Assembly: GCA_025927765.1 (NCBI GenBank)
Contig: JAICKU010000014.1
Span: 1-58,484 of the forward strand
Direction of reading: 5' to 3'
Source: Burkholderiales bacterium
GTDB lineage: Bacteria > Pseudomonadota > Gammaproteobacteria > Burkholderiales > Casimicrobiaceae
DNA length: 58,484 nucleotides
The position numbers were made by a program, and so were the translations under genes. The notes beneath the pieces are model-generated. The model was not told the origin of the DNA and did not search any database. It was given only the letters and a program-made list of their open reading frames with translations. This document shows, one piece after another, positions 37,056 to 50,666 of the stretch. How positions within the stretch are numbered: the stretch's first letter is position 1; every line of letters starts with the position of its first letter.

Positions 37056-38090
37056 TCAAAGCGCCGCGAGTTCGCGCACGATCTGCGATGCCGGCACGTC
37101 GCGGCAGCCGCTCGCATTCTGCCCCGACCACAACGGCGAGAAATCGCCGGATCCGGCTCGCTCGGCCGCGGCGCGAAGCGGCGCGACCGCTGCGGCGGCG
37201 AATGGAAACGATGGCGCCTTCGCGCTGATCGGGCCCACTTCGCGCACGACGCGATTGACGATGCCGCGCGCGGGACGCCCGGTGAACACGTTGGTGATCG
37301 CGGTATGGCGTGCCGCTTCGCTCGCGAGCGCGGCGCGATGAATCGGGGTCGTCGTCGTTTCCGGGCAACGCAGGAACGCGGTGCCGACCTGCGCGGCGAT
37401 GGCACCGAGTGCGAGCACGGCCTGCACCCCTGCCGCGTCGGCGATGCCGCCGGCAGCGATCACCGGCACGCGCACGGCGCGCGCGATCTGCGGGACGAGC
37501 GCGAGTGTGCCGACCTGCGTCGCGAGATCGGTGGACAGGAAGATGCCGCGATGCCCGCCCGCTTCCGCGCCCTGCGCGACGATCGCGTCGACGCCCTTCG
37601 CCTCGAGCCAGCGCGCTTCGTCGACCGTGGTGGCCGACGCGAGAATGCGCGCGCCGGTTGCGCGTGCGCGCGCGAGCAGCGCATCGGTGGGCAGTCCGAA
37701 ATGAAAGCTCACCACGGCGGGCTTCACTGCTTCGAGGACGCCGGCCGCCTCTGCGTCGAAAGGCGCGCGCGCGGGGCCCGGCTTGATCGTCGCAGGATCG
37801 ACGTCGAATTCGCGGTAATACGGTGCCAGCGTTTCGCGCCAGGCGGCCTCGGCCTGCGGATCCGGTTCCGCGGGCGCATGGCAGAAGAAATTGACGTTGA
37901 AGGGACGATGCGTCGCCGCCTGGATCGCACCGGCCTCGCGCCGAATGCCGGCGGCATCGAGCATCGCGCAAGGCAGCGATCCGAGCCCGCCTGCGTTGCA
38001 TACGGCAATCGCGAGCGTGCTCGCCTGCACGCCCGCCATCGGCGCCTGCACGATCGGCACGTCGATGCCCAGCAGTTGTCGCAGATTCAT
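37056..38090 (-). CDS. Nitronate monooxygenase (2-nitropropane dioxygenase family)
   Basis: 344 residues. FMN-binding TIM barrel with VPIVQAPMAGVQAS, a GLPTDALLAR strand, IVAQGAEAGGHRG (catalytic His region), PVIAAGGIADAAGV (phosphate-binding loop) and VGTAFLRCPE. It oxidises alkyl nitronates with release of nitrite or related products. Start ATG 38090. It is divergent from the DUF488 gene with only 33 bases between starts. Confidence 0.88.
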   Translation of the reverse strand: MNLRQLLGIDVPIVQAPMAGVQASTLAIAVCNAGGLGSLPCAMLDAAGIRREAGAIQAATHRPFNVNFFCHAPAEPDPQAEAAWRETLAPYYREFDVDPATIKPGPARAPFDAEAAGVLEAVKPAVVSFHFGLPTDALLARARATGARILASATTVDEARWLEAKGVDAIVAQGAEAGGHRGIFLSTDLATQVGTLALVPQIARAVRVPVIAAGGIADAAGVQAVLALGAIAAQVGTAFLRCPETTTTPIHRAALASEAARHTAITNVFTGRPARGIVNRVVREVGPISAKAPSFPFAAAAVAPLRAAAERAGSGDFSPLWSGQNASGCRDVPASQIVRELAAL

Positions 38091-38123
38091 CCGATCCCTT
38101 TCCACAGAAGAAGGAGCCCGACG

Positions 38124-38651
38124 ATGACGGCACGCGTGATCTACACGATCGGCCATTCGACGCGAAGCGCGGACGAGTTCGTCGCGCTGCTGCAGGCGCA
38201 CGCCGTCGACTGCCTCGCGGACGTTCGCACGGTGCCCCGCTCGCGCCACAATCCGCAGTTTAACGAGGACGCGCTCGCCGCGACGCTCGCCGCGCACCGC
38301 ATCCGCTACGTGCGCATCGCGGGACTCGGCGGCTTTCGGCGCACGTCGCCCGATTCGCCCAACACGGCCTGGCGCAACCTGTCGTTTCGCGGCTATGCCG
38401 ATTACATGCAGACACCGGCATTCGCCGAGAACGTCGAGGCGCTGATCGCGATCGCGCAGGACCATACCGTCGCCATCATGTGCGCCGAAGCGGTGCCCTG
38501 GCGCTGCCACCGCTCGCTCGTCGCCGACGCGTTGCTCGTGCGGGGCGTGCATGTCGAGGAGATCGCGGGCGAGACGAAGACGGCGCCGCATCGGCTGACG
38601 CCGTTCGCGAAGGTCGACGGAACGCGCATTCGCTACCCCGCCGCCAACTAG
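38124..38651 (+). CDS. DUF488 family protein
   Basis: 175 residues. AAGGAG at 38111 sets ATG 38124. The hallmark YTIGHSTRSADEF start, LADVRTVPRSR and the Cys-containing AIMCAEAVPWRCHRSLVADAL are conserved in DUF488, a family of unknown function proposed to bind nucleic acid or nucleotides. Its stop (TAG 38649-38651) runs into GGGTCGGACCC, a short relative of the GGGTCAG palindrome. Confidence 0.85.
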   Translation: MTARVIYTIGHSTRSADEFVALLQAHAVDCLADVRTVPRSRHNPQFNEDALAATLAAHRIRYVRIAGLGGFRRTSPDSPNTAWRNLSFRGYADYMQTPAFAENVEALIAIAQDHTVAIMCAEAVPWRCHRSLVADALLVRGVHVEEIAGETKTAPHRLTPFAKVDGTRIRYPAAN

Positions 38652-38681: not shown

Positions 38682-38695
38682 TTGATCCCGGTCAA
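38682..38695 (+). promoter_or_regulatory. FNR/DNR box upstream of nitronate-monooxygenase-like gene
   Basis: TTGATCCCGGTCAA matches TTGAT-N4-ATCAA at nine of ten positions. A TATGCT -10 element lies at 38719-38724, placing the box centre about 42 bp before the expected start site, the class II activator position. The leader to ATG 38760 would be about 30 bases. Confidence 0.8.
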
Positions 38696-38759
38696 GGCCG
38701 CGCGGGCGTCGTTTCGCCTATGCTCGCTCGCTCCCGGTCGCGACGTCCGCGACATTCGC

Positions 38760-39932
38760 ATGCCCGCCGACCCGCCTCCTCCGCTCGCGCCCCGTTCCCT
38801 CGTCATCCGCGGTCACGCGCTGCTGCCGATCGTGCAGGGCGGCATGGGTGTGGGCGTGTCGGCGCATCGCCTCGCCGGCAACGTCGCCCGCCTCGGCGCG
38901 CTCGGTACCATCTCCTCGGTCGACCTGCGGCGGCATCACGTCGACCTGATGGAACGCACGCGGCACTGCCGCGATCGCGCGACGATCGACGCCGCGAACC
39001 TCGAAGCGCTCGATCGCGAAATCTGCGCGGCGCGCGAGATCGCCGCCGGCAACGGCATGGTGGCGGTGAACGTGATGCGCGCGGTGTCGGGTTACGCGGA
39101 CTACGTGCGCCAGGCGTGCGCGAGCGGTGCTGCGGCCATCGTCGTCGGTGCGGGATTGCCGCTCGACCTGCCCGACCTCGCGAGTTCGCATCCCGACGTC
39201 GCGCTCGTGCCGATCCTCTCCGACGCGCGCGGCGTGCATGTCGTGCTGCGCAAATGGGAGCGCAAGAAGCGCTTGCCCGACGCGATCGTGCTCGAGCATC
39301 CGCGCTACGCCGGCGGTCATCTCGGCGCGGGCAGCATCGACGAGCTCGCCGACCCGCGCTTCGATTTCGAGCGCGTGATCCCCGCGACGCTCGACGTCTT
39401 GCGCCGCATGGGCCTGGCCGAGGACGCGATTCCGCTGATTCCCGCGGGCGGCATCAACTCGCCGGAGCGCGTGCGCGAGCTGTTCGCGCTCGGCGCGAAG
39501 GGCGTGCAGCTCGGCACCGCGTTCGCCGTCACGGAAGAAGGCGACGCCGCGCTCGAATTCAAGCAGGTGCTCGCCAATGCGAAGCCGTCGGACCTCGTCG
39601 AGTTCATCAGCGTGGCCGGCCTGCCGGCGCGGGCGGTGCGCACGCCGTGGCTCGACAACTACCTGCGGCACCTGCCGAAGCTGCAGGCCGTCGCGCACGT
39701 GAAGCAGCGTTGCACGCTGTATTTCGATTGCCTCGCGACCTGCGGTTTGCGCGACGGCATCGCGCACATCGGCCAGTTCTGCATCGATACGCAACTCGCG
39801 GCCGCGCTGCGCGGCGACGTGAAGAAGGGACTGTTCTTCCGCGGTGCGGCCGCGCTGCCGTTCGGCGCGCAGATTCGTCCCGTGCGCGATCTCGTCGCGC
39901 ATCTGCTCGGGCTGGCCGTCGCACCTGCGTAG
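38760..39932 (+). CDS. Nitronate monooxygenase-like flavoprotein under FNR/DNR-type control
   Basis: 390 residues, ATG 38760. Family features: LLPIVQGGMGVGVSAHRLAGNVARLGALGTIS at the N-terminus (segments VQGGMGVGVS and LGALGTIS), EHPRYAGGHLGAG with the likely catalytic His, IPLIPAGGINSPERV and GVQLGTAFAVTEEG. It is longer than the paralogue at 37056, with an extra Cys-containing C-terminal part (CTLYFDCLATCGLRDG). The FNR box at -42 indicates induction under oxygen limitation or NO. Together with the following regulator this suggests a role in nitrogen-oxide conditions rather than simple nitronate detoxification; that is inference. Confidence 0.85.
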   Translation: MPADPPPPLAPRSLVIRGHALLPIVQGGMGVGVSAHRLAGNVARLGALGTISSVDLRRHHVDLMERTRHCRDRATIDAANLEALDREICAAREIAAGNGMVAVNVMRAVSGYADYVRQACASGAAAIVVGAGLPLDLPDLASSHPDVALVPILSDARGVHVVLRKWERKKRLPDAIVLEHPRYAGGHLGAGSIDELADPRFDFERVIPATLDVLRRMGLAEDAIPLIPAGGINSPERVRELFALGAKGVQLGTAFAVTEEGDAALEFKQVLANAKPSDLVEFISVAGLPARAVRTPWLDNYLRHLPKLQAVAHVKQRCTLYFDCLATCGLRDGIAHIGQFCIDTQLAAALRGDVKKGLFFRGAAALPFGAQIRPVRDLVAHLLGLAVAPA

Positions 39933-40019
39933 ACGAGTCGCGGACCGCCTCCCCGGCGCCGTCGGCCACGCCGCTCGACGTTGCTCGACCGTGGTACCCT
40001 TCCGCGCGCGAGCGAAACC

Positions 40020-40712
40020 ATGTCGCGCCCGAAGATCTCCGCCCAGACGTTCCTGTCGCGCCTGCCCCTGTTCGAGGAGCTCGCGCCGGCCGAGCTCGAC
40101 CGCGTCGCGGCCGGCACCACGGAACTGCACGTCCCGCGCGGCGAAATCGTCGTCAATCGCGGCGACCCTTGCGTGGGTTTCCACGTCGTGATCTACGGAC
40201 AGGTGAAGCTCGCGTTCCTGTCGCCCGGCGGCGGCGAGAAGGTGGTCGAGATCATCCCGGCCGGCCACTCGTTCGGCGAAGCGCTGATGTTCATGGGCAA
40301 GCCGTACATCGTGATGGCGCAAACGCTCGCCGACTCCATGCTGCTGCACGTGTCGAAGAAGGCGGTGTTCGACGAACTCGAGCGCGACGCGGACTTCGCG
40401 CGCCGCATGCTCGCCGGATTGTCGCGGCGGCTGCACGCGCTGATCAGCGACGTCGAGTCGTACTCGATGCAGTCGGGCACCGAGCGCGTGATCGGCTACC
40501 TGATGCGCCAGGACGAGGAGCACGCAGCCGCGAACGCGCCCTACGTGATGCGGCTGCCGACATCGAAGGCGGTGGTCGCGTCGCTGCTCAACGTGACGCC
40601 CGAGCACTTCTCGCGCATCCTGCACGACCTGACCGAGCAGACGCTGATCGAGGTCGACGGCCGCGAGATCCGCATCGTCGATCCGGCGCGGTTACGCGCG
40701 TATCACGGCTGA
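40020..40712 (+). CDS. dnr: Crp/Fnr-family regulator, DNR type
   Basis: 230 residues. A cyclic-nucleotide-binding-like beta-roll occupies about 15-130, followed by a long dimer helix (RRLHALISDVESYSMQSGTERV) and a winged helix. The recognition helix contains Glu195, Ser198 and Arg199 (TPEHFSRIL), the E-xx-SR pattern that in FNR and DNR reads TTGAT half-sites. There is a single Cys (about 51) and no N-terminal Cys cluster, so it cannot be a [4Fe-4S] FNR; DNR proteins sense NO through heme. Matching boxes are at 38682, 41337, 45715 and 55068. The gene lies 87 bases after the nitronate-monooxygenase-like gene and is perhaps co-transcribed. Confidence 0.85.
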   Translation: MSRPKISAQTFLSRLPLFEELAPAELDRVAAGTTELHVPRGEIVVNRGDPCVGFHVVIYGQVKLAFLSPGGGEKVVEIIPAGHSFGEALMFMGKPYIVMAQTLADSMLLHVSKKAVFDELERDADFARRMLAGLSRRLHALISDVESYSMQSGTERVIGYLMRQDEEHAAANAPYVMRLPTSKAVVASLLNVTPEHFSRILHDLTEQTLIEVDGREIRIVDPARLRAYHG

Positions 40713-40723
40713 CGCGAGAAGCA

Positions 40724-40806
40724 GCGAAAGTAGCGTCAGGCTCGACTTGCTGCGAGCGGAGTCCGACCCTGCTTCTGGATCGAGTGGAGTCTGACCCTAC
40801 TTTCGC
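40724..40806. repeat. GGGTCAG palindrome, copy 3 (with a middle unit)
   Basis: The left arm GCGAAAGTAGCGTCAGGCTC (40724-40743) and right arm GAGTCTGACCCTACTTTCGC (40787-40806) are inverted repeats. A third unit GAGTCCGACCCTGCTTC lies between them at 40759-40775. It sits between the convergent dnr and DUF2249 genes. The TAG stop of DUF2249 lies inside the right arm. Confidence 0.7.
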
Positions 40807-41018
40807 TTTCGGATGGTGATGTCGAGCAGCGCGTCGACGCCCGGCTCCTCCTCGTGCGTATAGCCGTTGCGATCGAGGATGCGGAAGAGCGGCACCGGCC
40901 GGCAGTTGATCTTCACGCGCAGGCAATCGTCGGCGCCCAGCCGATCCAGTGATTCAAGCACGCGTTCGAGCGGCTCCGGTGCCTGCAGGCCGCGCACGTC
41001 GAGTTCGATGGTCGCCAT
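40797..41018 (-). CDS. DUF2249 (TusA-like) protein
   Basis: 73 residues. IELDVRGLQAPEPLERVLESLDRLGADDCLRVKINCRPVPLF (here in segments ELDVRGLQAPEPLERV and RVKINCRPVPLF) matches DUF2249, small TusA-like proteins common beside denitrification and hemerythrin genes. The last codons and stop are supplied by the GGGTCAG palindrome. The start lies 10 bases after the stop of the heme A synthase fragment, and both could be transcribed from the divergent FNR-box region near 41340. Confidence 0.75.
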   Translation of the reverse strand: MATIELDVRGLQAPEPLERVLESLDRLGADDCLRVKINCRPVPLFRILDRNGYTHEEEPGVDALLDITIRKRK

Positions 41019-41028
41019 CGATGAGATC

Positions 41029-41310
41029 CTAACGGTCGAGTGAATCGCGAAGCGCCCCGGCCCGCGCGTGCCGGCGCACGCAGCGCGTGCGCGACGAGCG
41101 CCACACCGCGGCCCCGACCGCCGGCACCGCGAACGCAAGCAGCCACGCGATCGCGCGATGGTCGAACTGCACGGTCGCCATGTTGTAGAGCGGATTCAGG
41201 TACCACGGCTCGAGCATCATGATCTCGGGCGGCACAACGTTGCCGTTCATCGAAGGGAACGTGTTGTACGCGGCGAGCGCCGATGCGTTCGCCTGTTGCA
41301 TGGACGCCAT
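41029..41310 (-). pseudogene. Fragment of COX15/CtaA-type heme A synthase
   Basis: 93 residues. The segment [20 protein letters not shown], then [21 protein letters not shown], is the diagnostic central loop and heme-ligand His region of COX15-type heme A synthases, which are normally 330-380 residues with eight helices. Here only one helix follows ([17 protein letters not shown]) and the C-terminus dissolves into an Arg-rich tail. It may be a remnant of a second ctaA, or a retained mini-protein. An intact, quite different CtaA homologue lies at 49671. It starts 27 bases from the FNR box. Confidence 0.6.
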
Positions 41311-41336: not shown

Positions 41337-41350
41337 TTGATCCGCGTCAA
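41337..41350 (+). promoter_or_regulatory. FNR/DNR box of the sNOR-like operon
   Basis: TTGATCCGCGTCAA. A TAGATT -10 element at 41373-41378 gives the same box-to--10 distance as at 45715, placing the box centre about 41.5 bp before the predicted start site. The box is nearly symmetrical and lies between divergent genes, so it could also affect the minus-strand heme A synthase fragment and DUF2249. Confidence 0.8.
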
Positions 41351-41441: not shown

Positions 41442-41630
41442 ATGAACGACAAAGTGGCGCCCAACCTGCTCGGGACGATCGAGGATGACGAGCTCGACGA
41501 ACCCATACCGGCGATGCAGCAACTGCTGGACAACCCTTTCCTGCTGCTCTTCATCGGTGTGGCGATGCCGACGGTTCTCTACGTCATCTGGGGCGTGATG
41601 GAGATCGTCAGCATTCCGATGGCCAAGTGA
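41442..41630 (+). CDS. Small single-helix membrane protein of the NOR-like operon
   Basis: 62 residues. AAGGAG precedes ATG 41442. An acidic N-terminus (TIEDDELDEPIP) is followed by one transmembrane helix (PFLLLFIGVAMPTVLYVIWGVMEIV, residues about 32-56). It precedes the CuA subunit gene by 13 bases. By position and size it resembles accessory subunits such as the subunit IIa or IV helices of heme-copper oxidases. I do not recognise a named family. Confidence 0.75.
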   Translation: MNDKVAPNLLGTIEDDELDEPIPAMQQLLDNPFLLLFIGVAMPTVLYVIWGVMEIVSIPMAK

Positions 41631-41643
41631 CCCGGAGCCTTGC

Positions 41644-42186
41644 ATGAGCGCGATCGAACCTCCCGTCGAGCGCATCTGGTGGAAGCAGCCGCTCGACCGC
41701 GTCGAAGGCACGTGGATCGTCATCGCCTTCGTCTGGTGCATCGTCATGTTCGTGATGATGCCGTACTGGCACATCTACGGTAAGCAGAACCTCAGCAACG
41801 AGGCGTACAGAACCACCGCCGAGGCGTACCTCAAGAAGGCGACGGAGTCGGCCGAGAAGACGACGGTCCGCACCGAGACCGACCTCAAGATTCCGGTCGT
41901 GCATCCCGCGCCCGGCGGCGACGCCTATCTCGTCGCGCGCCTGTGGCAGTGGTGGCCGATGCTCGAGCTCGAAGAAGGCAAGACGTATCGGATCCATCTC
42001 GCGTCGATGGACTTCCTGCACGGCTTCTCGCTGCAGCCCGAGAACATCAACATCCAGGTGCATCCCGGCTACGAGCACATCGTGACCGTCACGCCGACCA
42101 GGGCCGGCACCTACTCGATCATCTGCAACGAGTATTGCGGCATCAATCATCACACGATGGCGAGCAAGCTCTACGTCGTGAAGTAA
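41644..42186 (+). CDS. CuA subunit II of sNOR-like heme-copper NO reductase (NorS-like)
   Basis: 180 residues. One N-terminal transmembrane helix (about 22-42) and a periplasmic cupredoxin domain. CuA ligands are all present: His126 (LHGFS), Cys161, Cys165, His169 and Met172 (CNEYCGINHHTM), plus the Glu163 carbonyl position. It is only 180 residues, against 220-350 for typical oxidase subunit II, with a single anchor helix. It would accept electrons from cytochrome c or cupredoxin and pass them to subunit I. The order II-I-SenC corresponds to norSY-senC described in ammonia oxidisers. Confidence 0.85.
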   Translation: MSAIEPPVERIWWKQPLDRVEGTWIVIAFVWCIVMFVMMPYWHIYGKQNLSNEAYRTTAEAYLKKATESAEKTTVRTETDLKIPVVHPAPGGDAYLVARLWQWWPMLELEEGKTYRIHLASMDFLHGFSLQPENINIQVHPGYEHIVTVTPTRAGTYSIICNEYCGINHHTMASKLYVVK

Positions 42187-42202
42187 TGAGGGAGCGTCGA
42201 TC

Positions 42203-43930
42203 GTGATCAACCGCAACTTCCGCACCGACCCGGCCACCGGCCTCGTCTTCCACGAGACGGCCGAGAAGCTGATCCGCGCCAACGCCGTCGCCGCGGTCGT
42301 GTCGCTGCTCGTCGGCGGCATCCTCGCGTTCTTCGTCATCATGACGCGCTGGCCGGCCGTGCACCTGTTGCCGGCCGACTGGTTCTACCTCGTGCTGACC
42401 GCGCACGGCGTCGACATGCTGGTGCTGTGGATCATCTTCTTCGAGATCGCGGTGCTGTACTTCGCCGGCTGCGTGCTGCTGAAGTGCCGCCTCGCTGCGC
42501 CGAAGTGGGCGTGGACCGGGTTCTGGCTGATGGTGATCGGCGGCATCATGAACAACGTCGCCGTGTTCCGCGGCGACTCGAGCGTGATGTTCACCTCGTA
42601 CGTGCCGATGGGGGCACACCCGGCGTTCTACCTCGGCCTGATCCTGTTCGCCGTCGGCGCGCTGATCGGCTGCTTCGTGTTCCTGGGTTCGCTCGTCGTC
42701 GCCAAGAGCGAAAAGACGTACAACGGGTCGCTGCCGCTCGTCACGTTCGGCGCGGTGGTCGCGTGCATCATCGCCGTGTTCACGATCGCGTCGGGCGCGA
42801 TCATCCTGATCCCGACGTTCCTGTGGTCGGTGGGACTGATCCCGACGATCGACTCGCTGATGTACAAGACGGTGTGGTGGGCGTTCGGCCACAGCTCGCA
42901 GCAGATCAACGTGTCGGCGCACGTCGCGATCTGGTACGCGATCGCCGCGATCGTGTTCGGCGCGAAGCCCATGTCGGAGAAGGTGTCGCGCGGCGCGTTC
43001 CTGCTCTACATCTTCTTCCTGCAGCTCGCCTCCGCGCACCATCTCCTGTCCGACCCGGGCCTCACGTCGAACTGGAAGATCTTCAACACGAGCTACGCGA
43101 TGTACCTCGCGGTGCTCGCGTCGATGGTGCACGGACTGACGGTGCCGGGCGCGATCGAAGTCGCGCAGCGCCAGAAGGGCTACAACCGGGGTCTCTTCGA
43201 GTGGTTGCGCAAGGCGCCGTGGGGCAACCCGGTGTTCTCGGGCATGTTCATCTCGCTCGTGGGCTTCGGGTTCCTCGGCGGCATCTCGGGCGTGATGATG
43301 GGCACCGAGCAGCTGAACCTCATCATCCACAACACGATCTACGTGCCCGGGCACTTCCACGCCACCGTCGTCGTCGGCACCACGCTCGCGTTCATGGCGA
43401 TGACGTACTTCCTGATCCCGACGCTGTTCCGGCGCGAGATCATGTTTCCGAAGCTCGCCAAGTGGCAGCCGTACCTGTTCGGCCTCGGCATGAGCGGCTT
43501 TGCGCTGTTCATGATGGGCGCCGGCACGCTCGGCGTGCCGCGCCGGCACTGGGACATGACGTTCGCGGGCAACCCGCTCGGGTACGAGTTCGCGGGCACC
43601 GCGTACCTGATGATGGGCCTCACCGCCATCTGCGGCCTCATCGCGATCATCGGCGGCGGCGCCTACCTGCTGATCACCGTCGGCAGCGTGTTCTTCGGCA
43701 AGAAGATCGACGTGCCGGAGTATCGGACGCTCACGCTGCGCGAAGGCGCCGCGCCGCGTCCGGTGCGCCAGCCCGTCGCCGTCGCCATCGGTGCGCATCA
43801 CGGCAACATCGGCATCGCCGGTTTCGTGGCGCCGGGCACGTTCACGCTCGCGATGGTGTTCCTCGTCGCGTTCGTCCTGTACTACTTCGTCAACTGGAAG
43901 TACCTGTCGACGGTCTGGCCCTTGTCGTAA
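42203..43930 (+). CDS. Heme-copper subunit I lacking the HPEVY tyrosine (sNOR/NorY-like)
   Basis: 575 residues, about 13-14 membrane helices, GTG start with GAGGGAG upstream. Low-spin heme ligands: His68 (TAHGVD) and His386. High-spin heme ligand: His384 (PGHFHAT). Active-site metal ligands: His230 in helix VI and His279-His280 (ASAHHLL). Where oxygen reductases have HPEVY, this protein has H-S-S-Q-Q, so the cross-linked Tyr is absent, as in the proposed NO reductase branches of the superfamily. Operon context (CuA subunit, SenC) and FNR/DNR box support NO reduction. The exact family (sNOR) is from memory of the NorSY type and has not been checked by phylogeny. Confidence 0.85.
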   Translation: MINRNFRTDPATGLVFHETAEKLIRANAVAAVVSLLVGGILAFFVIMTRWPAVHLLPADWFYLVLTAHGVDMLVLWIIFFEIAVLYFAGCVLLKCRLAAPKWAWTGFWLMVIGGIMNNVAVFRGDSSVMFTSYVPMGAHPAFYLGLILFAVGALIGCFVFLGSLVVAKSEKTYNGSLPLVTFGAVVACIIAVFTIASGAIILIPTFLWSVGLIPTIDSLMYKTVWWAFGHSSQQINVSAHVAIWYAIAAIVFGAKPMSEKVSRGAFLLYIFFLQLASAHHLLSDPGLTSNWKIFNTSYAMYLAVLASMVHGLTVPGAIEVAQRQKGYNRGLFEWLRKAPWGNPVFSGMFISLVGFGFLGGISGVMMGTEQLNLIIHNTIYVPGHFHATVVVGTTLAFMAMTYFLIPTLFRREIMFPKLAKWQPYLFGLGMSGFALFMMGAGTLGVPRRHWDMTFAGNPLGYEFAGTAYLMMGLTAICGLIAIIGGGAYLLITVGSVFFGKKIDVPEYRTLTLREGAAPRPVRQPVAVAIGAHHGNIGIAGFVAPGTFTLAMVFLVAFVLYYFVNWKYLSTVWPLS

Positions 43931-44005
43931 CGCGGGAACGCGCGGGCGCGGCACGCACACGGCCGGGGCCCGCGCGGCTTGCGTGATCGAACAGCGAAGA
44001 CGACG

Positions 44006-44908
44006 ATGAACGCGACGACGACGCATGACGCGACACGACGCCAAAGCCGCGTCGCCCTGTTCTTCGATCTCTTCAAGCTGCGCATCGGCCTCGTGATCGG
44101 CTTCACGGCGCTCGCGGGCCTCGCCGTCGCGCCGGGACCGATGCCGTCAGCGTGGCGCATGGCGCTCCTGGTCTTCGCGGTCGTCGCGTCGTCGGCCGCC
44201 GCCGGCGCCTTCAATCAATACGTCGAGCGCGACATCGACGAGCGCATGGCGCGCACGCGACGCCGTCCGTTCGTCACCGGCCGTCTCGTGCATTCGCGCC
44301 GCTGGCTCGCGCTGATCGTGCTCATGTGCGCCGCCTCGGTGGCGCTCGCCGCGTTCGTCGCCAATGCGATGGCGGCGCTCTATACGTTCCTCGGCGCCTT
44401 CGTCTACGGCGTCGTCTACACCGTCTGGCTCAAGCGCCGTACGCCGATGAACATCGTCGTCGGCGGCCTCGCCGGCAGCTTCGCCGTGCTGGCGGGCGCC
44501 GCGGCCGTGACGCCCGGCGGTCTCGGCGCCGTGCCGCTGTGGCTCGCCGTGGTGCTGTTCCTGTGGACGCCGCCGCATTTCTGGAGCCTCGCGATCGCCT
44601 GCCGCGGCGACTACGAGGCGGCCGGCGTGCCGATGCTGCCCGCCGTCGTCGGCGACGTGCGCGCCGCGCGCGCGGTGCTCGTCGGGACCGTGCTGCTCGT
44701 CGCCGCATCGATTGTGCCGGCGCGGGTCGGCCTCTCGTGGATCTACGGCATCACCGCTGCGGCGAGCGGCGCGTACTTCCTGTGGAAGAGCGTGCTGCTC
44801 GTGCGCGATCCCTGCCGGAAGACCGCCATGGCGAATTTCCACGCGTCGCTCGTGCAGCTGACGCTGCTCCTGTCCGCGGCAATCGCCGATGCGCTGCTCG
44901 TTGCATGA
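44006..44908 (+). CDS. ctaB: Protoheme IX farnesyltransferase (heme O synthase)
   Basis: 300 residues, nine or so helices of the UbiA superfamily. The Asp-rich motif NQYVERDIDERMARTRRRP and the YTVWLKRRTPMNIVVGGLAG loop are typical of CtaB/CyoE. It converts heme B to heme O. Its place between subunit I and SenC suggests that the linked heme-copper enzyme uses heme O or A in its active site, which is not usual for classical cNOR and qNOR (heme b3). Its 3' end overlaps senC by 20 bases. Confidence 0.92.
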   Translation: MNATTTHDATRRQSRVALFFDLFKLRIGLVIGFTALAGLAVAPGPMPSAWRMALLVFAVVASSAAAGAFNQYVERDIDERMARTRRRPFVTGRLVHSRRWLALIVLMCAASVALAAFVANAMAALYTFLGAFVYGVVYTVWLKRRTPMNIVVGGLAGSFAVLAGAAAVTPGGLGAVPLWLAVVLFLWTPPHFWSLAIACRGDYEAAGVPMLPAVVGDVRAARAVLVGTVLLVAASIVPARVGLSWIYGITAAASGAYFLWKSVLLVRDPCRKTAMANFHASLVQLTLLLSAAIADALLVA

Positions 44909-45704
44909 GCGCCTGATCGCGCTGATCGTCCTCGCGCTCGTCGCGATCCCTGCCGTCGCGCTCGACGGCGACGCGGCGATGCGGCAAAGCCGCGCCGCGA
45001 TCGGCCGCACGCCGGCCGACTACGCGTTCACCGACGCCCATGGGCGCCGCGTGCAGCTCGCCGATTTACGTGGCAGGCCGCTCCTCGTGAGCTTCGTGTA
45101 CACCGGTTGCGGACAGGTGTGTCCGACGACGACGCGCTACCTGGACAAGGCCGTGCAGGAGGCAGCGGCCACGCTCGGCGACGACGCGTTCCACGTCGCG
45201 ACGATCGGCTTCAACTTGCCGTTCGACAACGTCGAGGCGATGCGCCAGTTCGCGAAGCACCAGGGCATCGACCGCGCGCAATGGAAGTTCCTGTCACCGG
45301 ACGCGGGCAGTGTGGAGCGCCTGACCGCCGACTTCGGCTTCTCGTACGAGGCGAGCACCGGCGGCTTCGATCACGTCACGCAGGTGTCGGTCGTCGACGG
45401 GAACGGGCGCATCGTCCAGCAGCTCTACGGCGAGTCGTTCGATCCGAAGCTGCTCGTATCCGCGGTGCGCAACGCCACGATCGGAGCGCCCGTCGTGCCG
45501 CAGGATCTGTCCGATCTCGTCTCGCGCGTGCGCATCCTCTGCACCGTCTACGACCCGCGCACCGGCACCTATCGTCTCGACTACAGCCTGTTCATCGAGA
45601 TCTTCGCGGGCCTCACGGTGCTCGGCGCCACGCTGACGTACCTGACGCGCGAATGGCGGCGTCAACGATCGGGGTCAGGGCAAAAAGCGCGCTCTTTGCC
45701 CTGA
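44889..45704 (+). CDS. senC: SCO1/SenC copper chaperone
   Basis: 271 residues. An N-terminal signal (LIALIVLALVAIPAVALDG) is followed by a thioredoxin-like domain with copper ligands Cys74-x3-Cys78 (TGCGQVCPTT) and His162 (GGFDHVTQVS). A C-terminal helix (LFIEIFAGLTVLGATLTYL) anchors it. It inserts copper into the CuA site. The last residues and TGA stop are encoded by the GGGTCAG palindrome at 45664, giving the odd tail SGSGQKARSLP. ATG 44889 overlaps ctaB; TTG 44901 is an alternative start. Confidence 0.92.
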   Translation: MRCSLHERLIALIVLALVAIPAVALDGDAAMRQSRAAIGRTPADYAFTDAHGRRVQLADLRGRPLLVSFVYTGCGQVCPTTTRYLDKAVQEAAATLGDDAFHVATIGFNLPFDNVEAMRQFAKHQGIDRAQWKFLSPDAGSVERLTADFGFSYEASTGGFDHVTQVSVVDGNGRIVQQLYGESFDPKLLVSAVRNATIGAPVVPQDLSDLVSRVRILCTVYDPRTGTYRLDYSLFIEIFAGLTVLGATLTYLTREWRRQRSGSGQKARSLP

Positions 45705-45715
45705 CCCCGATCGTT
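45664..45715. repeat. GGGTCAG palindrome, copy 4, near-perfect 52-base hairpin
   Basis: Two 26-base arms (outer AACGATCGGGGTCAGGGCAA) pair with a single A/C mismatch and essentially no spacer. It contains the senC stop codon and abuts the FNR box at 45715. It would be a very strong hairpin between the two respiratory operons, suited to end or protect the first transcript. Confidence 0.85.
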
Positions 45716-45762: not shown

Positions 45763-47709
45763 ATGCTGAGCGCGATCCAGCACGGCGGGCAGTTTCTCTT
45801 CCTTCGCCTCGAGCGCCTTTTCAATCGCGCGTTCGGCGAGGCGAACAACCCGCTCTACTACCTCGGCGCGATCACGTACTTCCTGTTCTGGATCGTCGTC
45901 GCCAGCGGGCTCTACCTGTACATCTTCTTCAAGACCGGCGTGCATGAAGCGAACGCGTCGGTCGAGCACCTGACGCACGACCCGTGGTACGTCGGCGGCG
46001 TGATGCGGAGCCTGCACCGCTACGCGTCGGACGGCCTCGTACTCGGCATGCTGCTGCACGTCACGCGCCATTTCACGTTCGACCGCTACCGCAGCTTCCG
46101 CTGGTTCTCGTGGATCACCGGCGTCGTCGTGCTGTGGCTCGTCTACGTGTCGGGCATCAACGGCTACATGCTGCCGTGGGATCGGCTGGCGCAGTTCGTC
46201 ACCGTCGGCACCGCCGAATGGCTCGACTGGCTGCCCGTGTTCAACGGCACGCTGATCCGCAACTTCATCTTCGAAGGCGCGGTCAACGACCGGCTCTTCT
46301 CGCTGCTGTCGTTCCTCCACATCGGCTTCCCGCTCGGCGTGCTCGCGCTGCTGTGGATCCACACGCAGCGCGTTCCGGGAGCCCGGACCAATCCGCCGCG
46401 GCCGATCATGGCGTGGCTCGTCGGCTCGCTCGTCGTGCTGTCGCTGCTGAAGCCGGCGCTCTCCCAGGGCATCGCGAACCTCGACACGGTGCCCGCTTCG
46501 ATCGATGTCGACTGGTTCTACCTGCCGATCTTTCCGCTGTTCTATCGCTGGTCGGTGGGCCACGTGTGGCTGCTGGTCGGCGTGGGAACGCTCCTGTTCG
46601 TGCTGCTGCCGTGGCTGCCGCCGAAGCGCCGCGGCAGGAACGAGTTCCACGTGATGGTGCACCCCGACAATCGCATCGTCGCGGCGCAGCCGGGCGAAAC
46701 GCTGCTCGACGCCGCGCTGCGCGACGAGATCGCCTTCCCGTTCGACTGCCGCAACGGGGGATGCGGCGTCTGCACGTGCACGCTGCTGTCCGGCCGTGTC
46801 GACTACGGCATCTACCAGTCGACGGCGTTGACGAAGGACGAGATCGCCGCGGGCAAGGCGCTGGCGTGCTGCGCGACGCCGCTCTCGGATGTCGAGATCG
46901 AGTACGTGCCGCAGCAGGCGGGGGCGGCACGCGCAGTCCCGAAGCATCGCGCGCAGGTGATCGAGCTCCGGCCTCTGGCCGACGACGTGATGCTCGTGCG
47001 CCTCGCACTGCTCGGCGAGCCCCCGCTTCGCTTCTACGCGGGCCAGTACCTGAACGTGCTGCTCGACGATGGCGAGAAGCGCAGCTTCTCGTTCGCGACG
47101 GCGCCGCACGACACCAAAGCGATCGAGCTGCACGTGCGCTACGTGCCGGGCGGCAAGTTCACGACGCGCGTCTTCCAGCAGATGAAGGTCGGCGACGTGA
47201 TCGAGTTCGAGGGACCGCAGGGCTCGTTCTTCCTGCGCGAGGACAGCGACAAGCCCATCGTGTTCGTTGCCGGCGCCACCGGGTTCGCGCCGGTCAAGAG
47301 CATGCTCGAGCACGCGTTCCACGCCGGGATCACGCGGCCGATGGTGCTGTACTGGGGCGTGCGCGCGAAGAAGGACCTGTACCTCGGCGACCTCGCGCAG
47401 CAATGGACGCGCGACCATTCGAATTTTCGCTTCGTTCCGGTGTTGTCCGAACCCACGCCCGGGGATCACTGGGACGGTCGAACGGGCCTCGTGCACGAAG
47501 CGATCCTCGCCGACTACCCCGATCTCTCGGGACACCAGCTCTATGCGTGCGGCTCGGTGCGAATGGTCGAGTCCGCGCATCCGGCGTTCGCGGCGCACGG
47601 CCTGTCGCAGGACGACTGCTTCTCCGACGCGTTCCGGCTCGCGCCACAACGGCCGCGAACGAGCGACCAGTCGGAGCTGGTGCGCCTCGGCGGGGTCGAA
47701 GTGGCATGA
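45763..47709 (+). CDS. Cytochrome b / [2Fe-2S] ferredoxin / FAD-NAD(P)H reductase fusion
   Basis: 648 residues, three modules. Residues about 1-290 form a cytochrome b (b/b6 N-terminal type) with both bis-His pairs: LHRYASDG...LLHVTRH and LHIGFPLG...WIHTQR, each 14 residues apart. Residues about 295-380 form a plant-type ferredoxin with Cys329, Cys334, Cys337 and a distal CC near 370. Residues about 385-648 form an FNR-like reductase with RSFSFATAP (FAD) and FVAGATGFAPVKSM (nicotinamide). Electrons could run NAD(P)H - FAD - 2Fe-2S - two b hemes - quinone or a partner enzyme. I know no characterised protein with this architecture. First gene of the second FNR-boxed operon. Confidence 0.88.
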   Translation: MLSAIQHGGQFLFLRLERLFNRAFGEANNPLYYLGAITYFLFWIVVASGLYLYIFFKTGVHEANASVEHLTHDPWYVGGVMRSLHRYASDGLVLGMLLHVTRHFTFDRYRSFRWFSWITGVVVLWLVYVSGINGYMLPWDRLAQFVTVGTAEWLDWLPVFNGTLIRNFIFEGAVNDRLFSLLSFLHIGFPLGVLALLWIHTQRVPGARTNPPRPIMAWLVGSLVVLSLLKPALSQGIANLDTVPASIDVDWFYLPIFPLFYRWSVGHVWLLVGVGTLLFVLLPWLPPKRRGRNEFHVMVHPDNRIVAAQPGETLLDAALRDEIAFPFDCRNGGCGVCTCTLLSGRVDYGIYQSTALTKDEIAAGKALACCATPLSDVEIEYVPQQAGAARAVPKHRAQVIELRPLADDVMLVRLALLGEPPLRFYAGQYLNVLLDDGEKRSFSFATAPHDTKAIELHVRYVPGGKFTTRVFQQMKVGDVIEFEGPQGSFFLREDSDKPIVFVAGATGFAPVKSMLEHAFHAGITRPMVLYWGVRAKKDLYLGDLAQQWTRDHSNFRFVPVLSEPTPGDHWDGRTGLVHEAILADYPDLSGHQLYACGSVRMVESAHPAFAAHGLSQDDCFSDAFRLAPQRPRTSDQSELVRLGGVEVA

Positions 47710-48209
47710 AACGCGTGCTCCGCTACGCCGCGCAGGCGATCCTGTACGCCGCCTTCGTCGGCGTTATCGGCTACTTCTCGAACCAGCCGGCCTACGAGCA
47801 TCTGCCGGCCAGCGATGCGCTGCTGAAGGTGTCGCTGTCGCACGCCGGCGCTCGCAAGGAAGCATGTCACGAGCGCTCGGCCGAGGAACTCGCGAAGCTC
47901 GCGCCGAACATGCGCGCGCAGACGGTGTGTCCGCGCGAGCGCGTGCCAGTCGTCGTCGACGTCGAACTCGACGGTGCGCGCCTCTTCCACGTCGTCGCCC
48001 CGCCTTCGGGGCTCGCCAGGGACGGCGCGTCGACGATCTATCGCCGGCTCCCGATCGTCGCGGGGGAACACCGCATCACCGCACGCCTGTCCGACACGCC
48101 CGACGGCACGTTCCATTACACGCACGACGCGACGCTGAACCTGCCGCCGGGTCGCGTGGTCGTCGTGGACTTCGATCCCACGCAAGGCGGCTTCGTCATC
48201 CGAAGCTGA
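47706..48209 (+). CDS. Unknown membrane-anchored periplasmic protein
   Basis: 167 residues. The ATG overlaps the fusion gene stop by 4 bases. One N-terminal helix (LRYAAQAILYAAFVGVIGYF), then a periplasmic domain with two Cys (KEACHERS and AQTVCPRE) that could form a disulfide, and beta-rich segments such as RLPIVAGEHRITARLSD and PPGRVVVVDFDPTQGGFVI. I do not recognise it. Its tight coupling to the cytochrome b fusion and the following heme-copper subunit suggests an assembly factor or accessory subunit of that complex. Confidence 0.75.
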   Translation: MKRVLRYAAQAILYAAFVGVIGYFSNQPAYEHLPASDALLKVSLSHAGARKEACHERSAEELAKLAPNMRAQTVCPRERVPVVVDVELDGARLFHVVAPPSGLARDGASTIYRRLPIVAGEHRITARLSDTPDGTFHYTHDATLNLPPGRVVVVDFDPTQGGFVIRS

Positions 48210-48225
48210 CGCACGGTGACGCGTC

Positions 48226-49674
48226 ATGCATGACTCCTGGCTCGACTGCCCGCTCCGCGCCTCGGACGCGTTTCGCACGACACGCGCGGCCACGCCGGCG
48301 GCGCGCTACCGGCTCGACATTCCTACAGATGCACGGCAAGCACTCGCGACACGCTGGCTCGGCCTCGGGCTCGCCGCGCTGATCGCCGCGGGGGTGCTGT
48401 CGATCCTTCTGGTGCTCTCGCGTACACCGGGCATCGCGCGCGTGCTGCCCGTGGCGGATTTCTTCCAGGTCGCACTCGTCGCGCATGTCGATCTATCGGT
48501 GCTCGTGTGGTTCTGCGCGTTCGCCGGCATGCTGTGGACGCTGAACAGCGCGCCACGCGCCCTGCGCGTCGCGACGTGGGGCTTCGCGCTCGTCGCCGCG
48601 GGCACGGCGGCGATCGCGCTCGCGCCGTTCGCCGGTGCGGGCCGGCCGGTGATGGCGAACTACATCCCGGTGCTCGACGAGCCGATCTTCCTCGCGGGCC
48701 TCGTCGTCGTCGCGCTCGGCGTGGCCGTCGTCGTGCTGCGCGGCATGGCCACGTCGCTGCCCGTGCGCCTGCGCCTCGACGGCGGCGACGCGCTGCGCTT
48801 CGGGCTCAACGCCTCGCTCGTCGCAACTGCAGTCGCCCTCCTCGCGTTCGTCGCGTCGTTCGCGGCGGCGCCGTCGTCGCTCGCGCCGAAGGCGTACTAC
48901 GAATTGCTGTTCTGGGGCGGCGGACACGTGCTGCAGTTCACGTGGACCCTCCTGATGCTGGTCGCGTGGCTGTGGCTCGCCGATGCCACGGGCGCGCGCG
49001 TGCCGCTGTCGCCGCGTGTGGTGACGCTGCTGTTCGGCATCGGCCTCGCATCGGTGTTCGCCACGCCGCTCATCTATCTCGCGCACGACGTCGGCTCGAT
49101 CGAGCATCATCGACTGCTCACGTGGCTGATGCGCTTCGGCGGCGGACTCGCGATTCCCCCCGTCGCCGCAGCCGTCGTGCTCGCGCTCGCGCGGCATCGT
49201 CATGTCGCCGACGACGCGAAGCCGCTGCGCGCATCGCTCGTCGCGTCGCTCGTGCTGTTCTGCGCCGGCGGCGGGATCGGCTTCCTGATCTCGGGCAGCA
49301 ACGTGAAGATCCCGGCGCATTACCACGGCTGCATCGTCGGCGTGACCATCGCGCTGATGGGGCTCGCTTACCTGCTGCTGCCGAAGCTCGGCTTCGCGCG
49401 GCCGTCGGGGCGCCTCGCGACGTGGCAGCCCTGCATCTACGGCGGCGGGCAGTTGCTGCACATCGCGGGGCTCGTGTGGTCCGGCGGTTACGGCGTGCAG
49501 CGCAAGGTCGCAGGCAGTGAGCAGGTGCTGCGCACGACGCAGGAGATCGCCGGGATGGGCTTGATGGGACTCGGCGGCTTGATCGCGGTGATCGGCGGCA
49601 TCCTGTTCGTGGCCGTCATGGTGAACGCCATGTGGTATCGCGTCGACGCGGCGCCCCTCGACCTCGTGCGATGA
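48226..49674 (+). CDS. Second, divergent heme-copper oxidase superfamily subunit I (putative NO reductase)
   Basis: 482 residues, about 12 helices. All six expected His are found: His87 (VAHVDLS), His234 (WGGGHVLQF), His294-His295 (SIEHHRLL), His365 and His367 (PAHYHGC). Helix VI has G-G-G-H-V-L-Q (Gln237) in place of HPEVY, with no Tyr three or four residues after the His. This is not an O2-reductase active site and also differs from the HSSQQ protein at 42203. A GGGHxxQ pattern recalls the eNOR-type proteins as I remember them, but this needs phylogeny. No CuA subunit accompanies it; the cytochrome b fusion may be its electron donor. The stop overlaps ctaA. Confidence 0.8.
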   Translation: MHDSWLDCPLRASDAFRTTRAATPAARYRLDIPTDARQALATRWLGLGLAALIAAGVLSILLVLSRTPGIARVLPVADFFQVALVAHVDLSVLVWFCAFAGMLWTLNSAPRALRVATWGFALVAAGTAAIALAPFAGAGRPVMANYIPVLDEPIFLAGLVVVALGVAVVVLRGMATSLPVRLRLDGGDALRFGLNASLVATAVALLAFVASFAAAPSSLAPKAYYELLFWGGGHVLQFTWTLLMLVAWLWLADATGARVPLSPRVVTLLFGIGLASVFATPLIYLAHDVGSIEHHRLLTWLMRFGGGLAIPPVAAAVVLALARHRHVADDAKPLRASLVASLVLFCAGGGIGFLISGSNVKIPAHYHGCIVGVTIALMGLAYLLLPKLGFARPSGRLATWQPCIYGGGQLLHIAGLVWSGGYGVQRKVAGSEQVLRTTQEIAGMGLMGLGGLIAVIGGILFVAVMVNAMWYRVDAAPLDLVR

Positions 49675-50666
49675 ACCTATCCATCGCGCCGGGCGTGCCC
49701 GCCGTCGATCGGCGCACAAACGTCGACGTCCCGGCCCAGCGCGTCGTGCGGATCCTCGCCACGCTCGCGGCCGCGCTCGTGCTCGTGATCGTCGTCGCCA
49801 GCGCCTACATGCGGCTTTCGGCCGCCGGACTCTCCTGCAGCGACTGGCCGGCGTGCTACGGGCACATCGCGACGACCGCCGAGCCGACGACGCACTTGCG
49901 GATCGCGCGCGTCGCGCATCGGATCGCCGCCACCGCAGTCGCGGCCATCGTGCTCACGCTCGTCGGCGTCACGCTGGTCGCGCGGCCACGACGCATCGGG
50001 CAGGCGCTGGCCGCGATCGGTGCACTCGGCGTCGTCGTGGGTTTGGCGGTCCTCGGCATCGCCACCTCCAGGCTTGCCGCTGCGCCGCTGCTGCCGGCGG
50101 TGACCCTCGCGAATCTGCTCGGCGGCTTCGTCCTGCTCGCGCTGGTGGTCGCGGTGCGCGCGACGAGCGACCCAATTCGCGTGGTCGTTGCGTCCTGGGT
50201 GCGCACACTCGCCCTCGTCGCGGTCGTCGTCGTCGCGTTGCAGGCCGTCCTGGGCGGCTTCGTCAGCGCGCGCTTCGCGGGGCTCGCGTGCCCCACGTTT
50301 CCACTCTGCGGGGTCGAGGTGCCAACGCGTGCGCTCCCCGCGCTGCTCGACCCGTTCGCCCCCATCGCCGTCGACGCGGCGAACACGATCGTGCGCGCGC
50401 CGGCACTTGCAGCGTTGCAATGGGCGCATCGCGTGGGCGCGCATGCCGTGCTGTTCCTGGCGATCGCGCTCGCGATCGGGCTCGCCCGCGCGCGCCATTT
50501 CGCGCTGGCCACAGCGGCAATCGCGCCCGTGATCGCCGAACTCGCGCTCGGCGTCGGTTCGGTCGTCTTCGATCTGCCGCTCCCCGTCGTGCTGGCGCAC
50601 ACCCTCGTCGCGGCGCTACTGCTCGCGACGCTCGTCGCCGTCGCCCTGCGATGCCGATCATCCTAG
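49671..50666 (+). CDS. ctaA: Heme A synthase (CtaA/COX15 family)
   Basis: 331 residues, eight predicted helices in two four-helix halves. Conserved His residues are in RIARVAHRIAA, LQWAHRVGAH and VLAHTLVAA. Cys pairs GLSCSDWPACYG and GLACPTFPLCG lie in equivalent loops of each half, as in bacterial CtaA. It oxidises the C8 methyl of heme O to the formyl of heme A. It overlaps the second heme-copper subunit gene by 4 bases, arguing that a heme A-like cofactor is built for this cluster. The 3' end overlaps the RES toxin gene by 9 bases. Confidence 0.88.
   Translation: MNLSIAPGVPAVDRRTNVDVPAQRVVRILATLAAALVLVIVVASAYMRLSAAGLSCSDWPACYGHIATTAEPTTHLRIARVAHRIAATAVAAIVLTLVGVTLVARPRRIGQALAAIGALGVVVGLAVLGIATSRLAAAPLLPAVTLANLLGGFVLLALVVAVRATSDPIRVVVASWVRTLALVAVVVVALQAVLGGFVSARFAGLACPTFPLCGVEVPTRALPALLDPFAPIAVDAANTIVRAPALAALQWAHRVGAHAVLFLAIALAIGLARARHFALATAAIAPVIAELALGVGSVVFDLPLPVVLAHTLVAALLLATLVAVALRCRSS

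What the first reader, a model, noticed from the sequence alone, without database searches (positions are those of the whole stretch)
41442..45704. FNR/DNR-boxed operon for a Tyr-less heme-copper NO reductase (sNOR/NorSY type)
Subunit I keeps all six metal-ligand His but has H-S-S-Q-Q where oxidases have HPEVY, so the cross-linked Tyr needed for O2 chemistry is missing. It comes with a short CuA subunit, a 62-residue helix protein, heme O synthase and SenC. The gene order resembles norSY-senC. Regulation by an NO/low-oxygen box fits NO reduction. Such enzymes have hardly been studied, and the 62-residue subunit is undescribed as far as I know.
Basis: partly seen in the sequence, partly recalled or inferred. 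Interest (0 to 1): 0.75.

Follow-up and report, generated by a model that had tools for sequence, protein, structure and literature searches.

The report
Gln-type nitric oxide reductase (eNOR) operon
This is a gene set for a known but little-studied type of bacterial nitric oxide reductase (eNOR, not sNOR as first guessed), ordinary for that type, accompanied by an unexplained second membrane protein of the same fold that seems to travel with it.

Summary
In detail: an operon behind an FNR/DNR-type box encodes a heme-copper subunit I with all six His ligands and Gln (H-S-S-Q-Q) where B-family oxidases have Tyr, plus a 62-aa helix protein, CuA subunit, heme O synthase and SCO/SenC. The label sNOR fails: a published table gives Asn for sNOR and Gln for eNOR. 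Subunit I falls in one supported Gln-type clade apart from the ten B-family oxidases included; Q233, Q234, N236 and H310 are invariant in 101 of 101 sequences. The family is widespread (575 confirmed matches in one capped scan). Of 200 genomes of the order, 17 of 19 carriers and 37 of 181 others have a strong cd1-type gene. It fits the published eNOR (ba3-a1), for which NO reductase activity is reported; no verified eNOR could be put in the tree. Added here: the 62-aa protein is a conserved positional counterpart of subunit IIa; the cluster runs to about 50.7 kb and includes a heme-copper-fold protein without a conserved CuB His pair, present in 19 of 19 carriers and 1 of 181 others. A new member of a known kind; the companion protein is the part worth pursuing.

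The parts
39981..40712 (+). Crp/FNR-family regulator without an N-terminal Fe-S Cys cluster (DNR/FtrB-like); likely but unproven regulator of the operon
   Evidence: PF00027 + PF13545; FtrB model PRK09392 at 1e-29, 103.6 bits, below its cut-off 211; homologues at E 1e-74 or better in 8 of 115 related loci. Absence of the Cys cluster is read from the sequence; the E-x-x-S-R recognition-helix reading is recalled knowledge.
40800..41021 (-). DUF2249/TusA-like small protein, divergent from the operon
   Evidence: PF10006 45.4 bits; matches in 16 of 115 related loci, 13 genomes
41032..41310 (-). C-terminal fragment (93 aa) of a heme A synthase gene, divergent; full-length in relatives
   Evidence: PF02628 positions 206-280 of 322; 12 relatives carry a CtaA frame of 345-473 aa on the opposite strand 580-1021 bp before subunit I; two of these tested span PF02628 2-321 of 322
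41337..41350 (.). FNR/DNR-type box TTGATCCGCGTCAA, centre about 98 bp before the first start codon
   Evidence: enriched at this place in relatives
41442..41630 (+). 62-aa single-helix protein, positional counterpart of subunit IIa
   Evidence: 85 of 100 loci after an overlap filter (L053 on the wrong strand), 95 of 100 same-strand matches without it (L099 is spurious); P23 90, Q26 92, D30 94, W50 95, G51 96 of 96
41644..42186 (+). subunit II with CuA site (C161xxxC165xxxH169xxM172)
   Evidence: PF00116; CxxxCxxxHxxM in 101 of 101 subunit II sequences collected
42203..43930 (+). subunit I, Gln-type heme-copper NO reductase (Q234 = codon 42902-42904)
44006..44908 (+). heme O synthase (CtaB/CyoE)
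   Evidence: TIGR01473 254.7 bits, cut-off 210.3
44889..45704 (+). SCO1/SenC copper chaperone
   Evidence: PF02630 52.2 bits
45763..47709 (+). cytochrome b (N-terminal type) fused to 2Fe-2S ferredoxin and FAD/NAD reductase domains
   Evidence: PF00033, PF00111, PF00970, PF00175; cyt b matches in 78 of 100 loci: by score 18 loci like this one, 72 of the more distant kind, 12 with both; the 72 distant proteins all have two 4Fe-4S motifs
47706..48209 (+). 167-aa protein of unknown function, conserved behind the cyt b gene
   Evidence: relative in 27 of 100 loci; no Pfam match better than E 0.06
48226..49674 (+). second heme-copper-fold protein ('HCO2'): heme His H87, H365, H367 plus H234 and Q237, no conserved CuB His pair
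   Evidence: PF00115 49.5 bits; 26-sequence alignment; model pLDDT 84.7, cbb3/ba3 fold; co-occurrence
49632..50666 (+). divergent CtaA-like (heme A synthase family) protein; the true start may be the later ATG at 49671
   Evidence: PF02628 103.8 bits

Best explanation
The operon encodes an eNOR (published also as ba3-a1): a B-family-derived, CuA-containing NO reductase fed by cytochrome c or a cupredoxin. Inferred path: electrons enter at CuA of subunit II, pass to the low-spin heme (H68/H386) and on to the high-spin heme (H384)/CuB (H230, H279, H280) site, where 2 NO become N2O. Gln234 stands in for the cross-linked Tyr, so four-electron O2 splitting is not expected. Protons would come by a reshaped K-channel (Y245 and S307 kept, Thr replaced by invariant His310). 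SCO loads CuA; CtaB, and heme A synthase elsewhere in the genome, supply heme; the small helix completes subunit II. An FNR/DNR-family regulator turns the operon on at low O2 or with NO. Shown here: gene content, ligand residues, clade, box conservation, co-occurrence with cd1-type genes. Inferred: activity, electron donor, proton path, heme type, which regulator.
For: Gln at the Tyr position, the published eNOR hallmark (Table A4), in 101 of 101 sequences, and in 13 of 13 loci read from the Thermomicrobium-like phylum (one of them already among the 101). Single clade (99/95) apart from ten B-type rows (100/99), all ten with Tyr. Closest solved structures by sequence and fold are B-type oxidases, Thermus ba3 and entry 7deg. 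Strong cd1-type gene in 17 of 19 carriers against 37 of 181 others, Fisher 3e-9. nirS or NirK-like genes near it in Thermus plasmids and in Bdellovibrionales, alphaproteobacterial, Nitrospirae, Thermomicrobium-phylum, Gemmatimonadota and Fraserbacteria loci. NO-related neighbours: Rrf2 regulator and DUF542 in Thermus, hemerythrin family in 25 of 115 loci, the query's own locus included. FNR-type box in 31 of 95 against 42 of 1900. Literature (passages): ba3-a1 operon with SCO and no catalytic Tyr, function then open (PMC6431628); activity since reported, renamed eNOR (PMC8879329).
Against: No biochemically verified eNOR (e.g. of Rhodothermus marinus) could be placed in the tree, so membership rests on the hallmark residue, B-family affinity and descriptions in papers. 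The main eNOR paper (PNAS 2024) is not held. The window's own genome (95.64% complete) showed no strong cd1 gene and no NirK over the cut-off; carrier G100 shows no strong cd1 gene either. In this order NirK over the cut-off occurs in 0 of 19 carriers and 21 of 181 others. The own genome also encodes a qNOR, so eNOR is not its only NO reductase. Two of the four B-type K-channel residues are changed. Shared ancestry inflates the Fisher values.
Confidence: 0.88

Rival explanations
1. It is an sNOR (NorSY-SenC type).
For: CuA subunit, subunit I and SCO/SenC in a row behind a low-oxygen/NO-type box.
Against: sNOR is listed with Asn at the Tyr position, here Gln in 101 of 101. In the order, a B-type query gave 36 of 399 genomes with a match; the three loci read outside the Gln type keep Tyr, so no Asn-type was seen, but not all matches were read.
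Confidence: 0.04
2. It is a degenerate B-family oxygen reductase that scavenges O2 at low oxygen without the cross-linked Tyr.
For: Closest solved relatives are B-type oxidases. Low-oxygen-type box. PMC6431628 (2019, passages) left the function open and called it a degenerate B family oxidase. For the related sNOR question, PMC6967387 (passages) argues for O2 reduction.
Against: No Tyr at the ba3 position nor at the cbb3 position in TM7. The invariant Q/Q/N/H set shows conserved function, not decay. Linked to cd1-type genes, NirK-like genes, DUF542, hemerythrin. Activity later reported for the subtype (PMC8879329).
Confidence: 0.06
3. About its role, and compatible with the best explanation: in this organism it removes NO made by neighbours or by chemistry (detoxification) rather than serving a respiratory chain from nitrite.
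For: Own genome: no strong cd1 gene and no NirK over the cut-off found, but qNOR and NosZ present.
Against: A CuA enzyme with a partly kept K-channel suggests coupling to the respiratory chain. The assembly is incomplete (148 contigs), so a nir gene may be missing. 17 of 19 carriers in the order do have a cd1-type gene.
Confidence: 0.4

Closest known systems
eNOR (ba3-a1 subtype of B-family heme-copper enzymes)
   Same: Gln at the active-site Tyr position, B-family-like subunit I, CuA subunit, SCO in the operon, company of nirS/nirK genes
   Different: Nothing tested sets it apart; the cyt b-ferredoxin-reductase module and the CuB-less companion were not mentioned in the passages I saw
sNOR (NorSY-SenC of Nitrosomonas)
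   Same: CuA subunit + subunit I + SenC; B-type relation; proposed NO reductase
   Different: Asn reported at the active site there, Gln here
CuA-NOR / bNOR (Bacillus)
   Same: CuA subunit, B-family relation
   Different: Asn reported at the active site (Table A4)
ba3 oxygen reductase (Thermus thermophilus; Aquifex aeolicus)
   Same: Fold, six His, CuA subunit, small helix gene upstream of subunit II
   Different: Cross-linked Tyr there, Gln here; K-channel Thr there, invariant His here

Membership tests
eNOR | Gln at the position of the cross-linked Tyr | tested here: met
   Q234; 101 of 101 sequences; criterion from Table A4
eNOR | B-family-related subunit I with the six His ligands | tested here: met
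   (H386 is Lys in the 2 Thermus plasmid copies among the 101)
eNOR | cupredoxin (CuA) subunit II next to subunit I | tested here: met
   CxxxCxxxHxxM in 101 of 101 subunit II sequences
eNOR | one proton channel (K-channel) | tested here: inconclusive
   of the four B-type K-channel residues named in PMC3128077, Y245 and S307 are kept, Tyr became Q234, Thr became H310, each 101 of 101
eNOR | same clade as a biochemically verified eNOR | not testable with these tools
   no verified, named eNOR sequence was reached; the one genome-contig scan kept 80 of 575 relatives
eNOR | NO reductase activity | not testable with these tools
   needs the protein
sNOR (NorSY) | Asn at the position of the cross-linked Tyr | tested here: not met
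   Gln
sNOR (NorSY) | same clade as Nitrosomonas NorY | not tested
   no verified NorY at hand
B-family O2 reductase | cross-linked Tyr in H-x-x-x-Y | tested here: not met
cbb3 (C-family) O2 reductase | Tyr six residues before the HH pair in TM7 | tested here: not met
   Leu/Ile in 101 of 101; the genome's own cbb3-like protein shows YMWAGPHH; that this Tyr is the cross-linked one is recalled
subunit IIa of B-type oxidases (for the 62-aa protein) | single-helix protein encoded directly upstream of subunit II | tested here: met
subunit IIa of B-type oxidases (for the 62-aa protein) | detectable sequence homology | tested here: not met
   hhalign probability 0.6% against six B-oxidase IIa-type proteins

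The most novel reading that the evidence does not exclude
eNOR in the window's order, and in some Nitrospirae, Rokubacteria, Deltaproteobacteria and a gammaproteobacterium, works with a dedicated second heme-copper-fold protein (48226-49674) that has lost the CuB His pair but kept the heme ligands and the GHxxQ signature. It may be a diheme NO-binding, NO-sensing or heme-delivery partner derived from the same ancestor as eNOR. My three literature searches that bear on it (open-access library only) listed no paper about it.
Probability: 0.35. Interest if true: 0.65.

Novelty: new member of a known kind. Interest (0 to 1): 0.38.

Why it matters
The plasmid copies of this type are annotated as cytochrome c oxidase, so genomes that carry it can be miscounted in N2O budgets. 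The GH-x-x-QQ-x-N ... H310 signature separates it from the oxidases examined here. The window's organism appears to hold two NO reductases and NosZ without a detected NirS or NirK. If the CuB-less companion is a true eNOR partner, it would be a new use of the heme-copper fold and a direct handle on how eNOR is assembled or sensed.

Tried and rejected
sNOR: rejected on the active-site residue. A search with a Deinococcus B-type protein in 399 genomes of the order for an Asn-type sNOR gave matches in 36; the best three (L158-L160) keep Tyr, two further loci read (L161, L166) are Gln-type, the rest were not read one by one; no sNOR reference was obtained. Tyr from TM7 as in cbb3: rejected. Homology of the 62-aa protein with subunit IIa: position and helix fit, sequence does not. 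The companion as a full oxidase or NOR: the window copy and some others show EHH in TM7, but the pair is not conserved among 26 sequences, so CuB is unlikely. The companion as a universal eNOR subunit: rejected, matches below 1e-50 in 6 of 29 genomes searched (30 chosen loci, one not held), one of the six being L085 of the window's own order; the weak matches in others fall at least in part on subunit I itself. In the order, the copy of G102 has one in-frame TGA, and three carriers (G011, G132, G170) have a second, more distant copy, the kind also found in the one non-carrier G145. Its sister relation to eNOR (99/97) is weakened by long branches that the tool flagged and by only four A/C/qNOR rows. 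Literature searches: no listed title or abstract start points to it.

Limits of the counts: the genome-contig scan used the patterns WI[IL]FFE[VIM]A and [WY]W[GA][FML]GH[SG][SA]Q, so part of the conservation of G229, H230 and Q233 is built in; Q234, N236 and H310 are not in the patterns. In one search the SCO and CtaB counts (40 and 48 of 100) are lower bounds, because flanks end and an overlap filter hides frames. In one search three of the 115 loci (L231-L233) were second stretches of G022, G118 and G055, fetched because a cd1 gene was known to be near; without them 9 of 112 loci match cd1 at 1e-8, five strongly (E below 1e-150: L121, L056, L053, L105, L029). NirK-like: 7 of 115, two being Thermus plasmids and one weak (L064). 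The box controls are random stretches, mostly coding. Fisher values ignore shared ancestry. PF02239 also covers NirN/NirF-type proteins (recalled), so one search counts cd1-type genes, not proven NirS.
Full report
What is there. Window 41442-45704 holds, on the + strand, a 62-aa single-helix protein, a CuA subunit II, a 575-aa heme-copper subunit I, heme O synthase and SCO/SenC. The box TTGATCCGCGTCAA lies at 41337-41350. Same-strand genes continue with a cytochrome b-ferredoxin-FAD/NAD fusion (45763-47709), a 167-aa protein, a second heme-copper-fold protein (48226-49674) and a CtaA-like protein (49632-50666). Divergently placed are a DUF2249/TusA-like gene and a 93-aa C-terminal fragment of a heme A synthase gene.

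Subunit I. By sequence and by predicted fold (pLDDT 81.8) its nearest solved relatives are B-type oxidases: Thermus ba3 and entry 7deg. The His ligands are complete. At H230-S-S-Q-Q234 the Tyr of H-P-I-V-Y is Gln. In 101 sequences (window plus 100 loci) Q233, Q234, N236, Y245, S307 and H310 are invariant, as are H68, H230, H279, H280 and H384; H386 is Lys in the two Thermus plasmid copies. The scan patterns that found 80 of the loci force part of the G-H-x-x-Q conservation, not Q234, N236 or H310. Of the four K-channel residues named for B-type oxidases in PMC3128077 (passages), two are kept, one became Gln, one became His. A Tyr at the cbb3 place is absent.

Which family. Table A4 of PMC8756737 (part 1 of the appendix read; passages) lists Y for oxygen reductases, E for cNOR and qNOR, N for sNOR and CuA-NOR, D for gNOR, Q for eNOR. 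The window fits eNOR and not sNOR. PMC6431628 (passages) described a ba3-a1 operon with SCO genes in magnetospirilla; [quoted passage not shown] PMC8879329 (passages) says, citing another work, that this subtype reduces NO with cytochrome c and is renamed eNOR. PMC4653789 (passages) reports eNOR in an operon with NirK in Ardenticatena (Chloroflexi). Here 13 of 151 genomes of the phylum of G399 (the genome of L040, 92% like Thermomicrobium; Chloroflexota by my recall of GTDB) carry the family, and all 13 loci read show the Gln pair as GHGAQQ, GHPAQQ or GHGSQQ; 2 of the 12 longer stretches taken hold a NirK-like gene. In a 58-row tree the 34 Gln-type rows are one group (99/95), the 10 B-type rows another (100/99). 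No verified eNOR or sNOR row was available.

Spread and company. On plasmids, Defluviimonas carries the same gene order at 62% identity, followed by hemerythrin; two Thermus plasmids read carry it beside nirS or a NirK-like multicopper oxidase, an Rrf2 regulator and DUF542. Over 100 loci the window's proteins find relatives, after an overlap filter, as follows: CuA 89, small helix protein 85, cyt b module 77, CtaB 48, SCO 40, 167-aa protein 27, regulator 19, companion 19 (lower bounds; without the filter same-strand CuA 100, and small protein 95). In 200 genomes of the window's order 19 carry subunit I. A strong cd1-type match occurs in 17 of these and 37 of the other 181 (Fisher 3e-9), in seven carriers about 2-30 kb from subunit I on one contig (G022, G055, G118, G092, G039, G010, G065; coordinates). 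Against a simple picture: the own genome and G100 have no strong cd1 match; NirK over the cut-off occurs in 0 of 19 carriers and 21 of 181 others. The own genome has a qNOR and NosZ.

Regulation. A perfect TTGAY-N4-RTCAA box lies within 300 bp upstream in 31 of 95 operons with enough upstream sequence, against 42 of 1900 random stretches of the same loci. A Crp/FNR-family gene stands before the operon (39981-40712), and homologues at E 1e-74 or better stand near 8 of 115 related loci. That this protein binds this box is inference.

The 62-aa protein. It is found before the CuA gene across phyla, with P23, Q26, D30, W50 and G51 in 90, 92, 94, 95 and 96 of 96 (L099 in that set is spurious). Place, size and single helix match subunit IIa of B-type oxidases, shown experimentally in Thermus and Aquifex (PMC3128077); profile comparison finds no sequence homology (probability 0.6%). 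I call it a positional counterpart.

Heme supply. Twelve relatives carry a CtaA frame (345-473 aa) on the opposite strand 580-1021 bp before subunit I (two tested are full-length), and some a CtaA-like gene near it. In the window the first is reduced to a fragment, the second lies behind the companion gene, and the genome has a complete CtaA elsewhere. This points to heme A or O in the enzyme; not settled here.

The companion protein. The 482-aa product of 48226-49674 scores 49.5 bits to PF00115, has no sequence match in the PDB at E 0.01, and is modelled at pLDDT 84.7 with the heme-copper fold (cbb3 and ba3 best). Among 26 sequences H87, H234, Q237, H365 and H367 are invariant while the TM7 His pair for CuB is not. 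It is present in 20 of 200 genomes of the order at E 1e-30: all 19 eNOR carriers plus G145 (Fisher 1e-25). In a Deltaproteobacterium, a Nitrospirae and a Rokubacteria bin its frame is the next long one after subunit I. In 29 searched genomes chosen from other loci, 6 have a match below 1e-50, one of these from the window's order. The tree joins it to the Gln-type clade (99/97) with long branches. Most likely it binds two hemes and no CuB; whether it senses or binds NO or serves assembly is open.

Verdict. The companion protein is the novel element.

Noticed in passing
48226-49674: Heme-copper-fold protein without a conserved CuB His pair, found in all 19 eNOR carriers and 1 of 181 other genomes sampled in the order
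   Followed up: partly
41032-41310 (-): 93-aa C-terminal remnant of a heme A synthase gene where 12 relatives have a long divergent CtaA frame; a CtaA-like gene lies at 49632-50666
   Followed up: partly
45763-47709: Cytochrome b fused to 2Fe-2S ferredoxin and FAD/NAD domains; most relatives have instead cytochrome b with two 4Fe-4S motifs (FlpD-like end in Defluviimonas), some have both
   Followed up: partly
L029:8983-10668 and L030:7983-9668: Thermus plasmid Gln-type copies have H-F-K where the other 99 of 101 have the second His, so the low-spin heme may have a Lys ligand
   Followed up: no
L042, L047, L061, L063, L068, L079, L103: Seven loci show subunit I as a frame of about 505 aa plus a separate 43-48 aa frame matching its C-terminal helix, as if the last helix were its own gene
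   Followed up: no
45664-45715: 26-nt inverted repeat (96% complementary, no gap) across the end of the SCO gene, possibly a terminator or attenuator before the cyt b gene
   Followed up: no
L028:13526-13930 and 24 other loci: Hemerythrin-family frame in 25 of 115 loci near the operon, a possible NO/O2-binding partner
   Followed up: no
37059-38588 (-) and 38682-39932 (+): Two nitronate monooxygenase-family genes back to back upstream
   Followed up: no
own genome C107, C20: qNOR and NosZ present while no strong cd1 gene and no NirK over the cut-off was found, suggesting an NO/N2O consumer
   Followed up: partly
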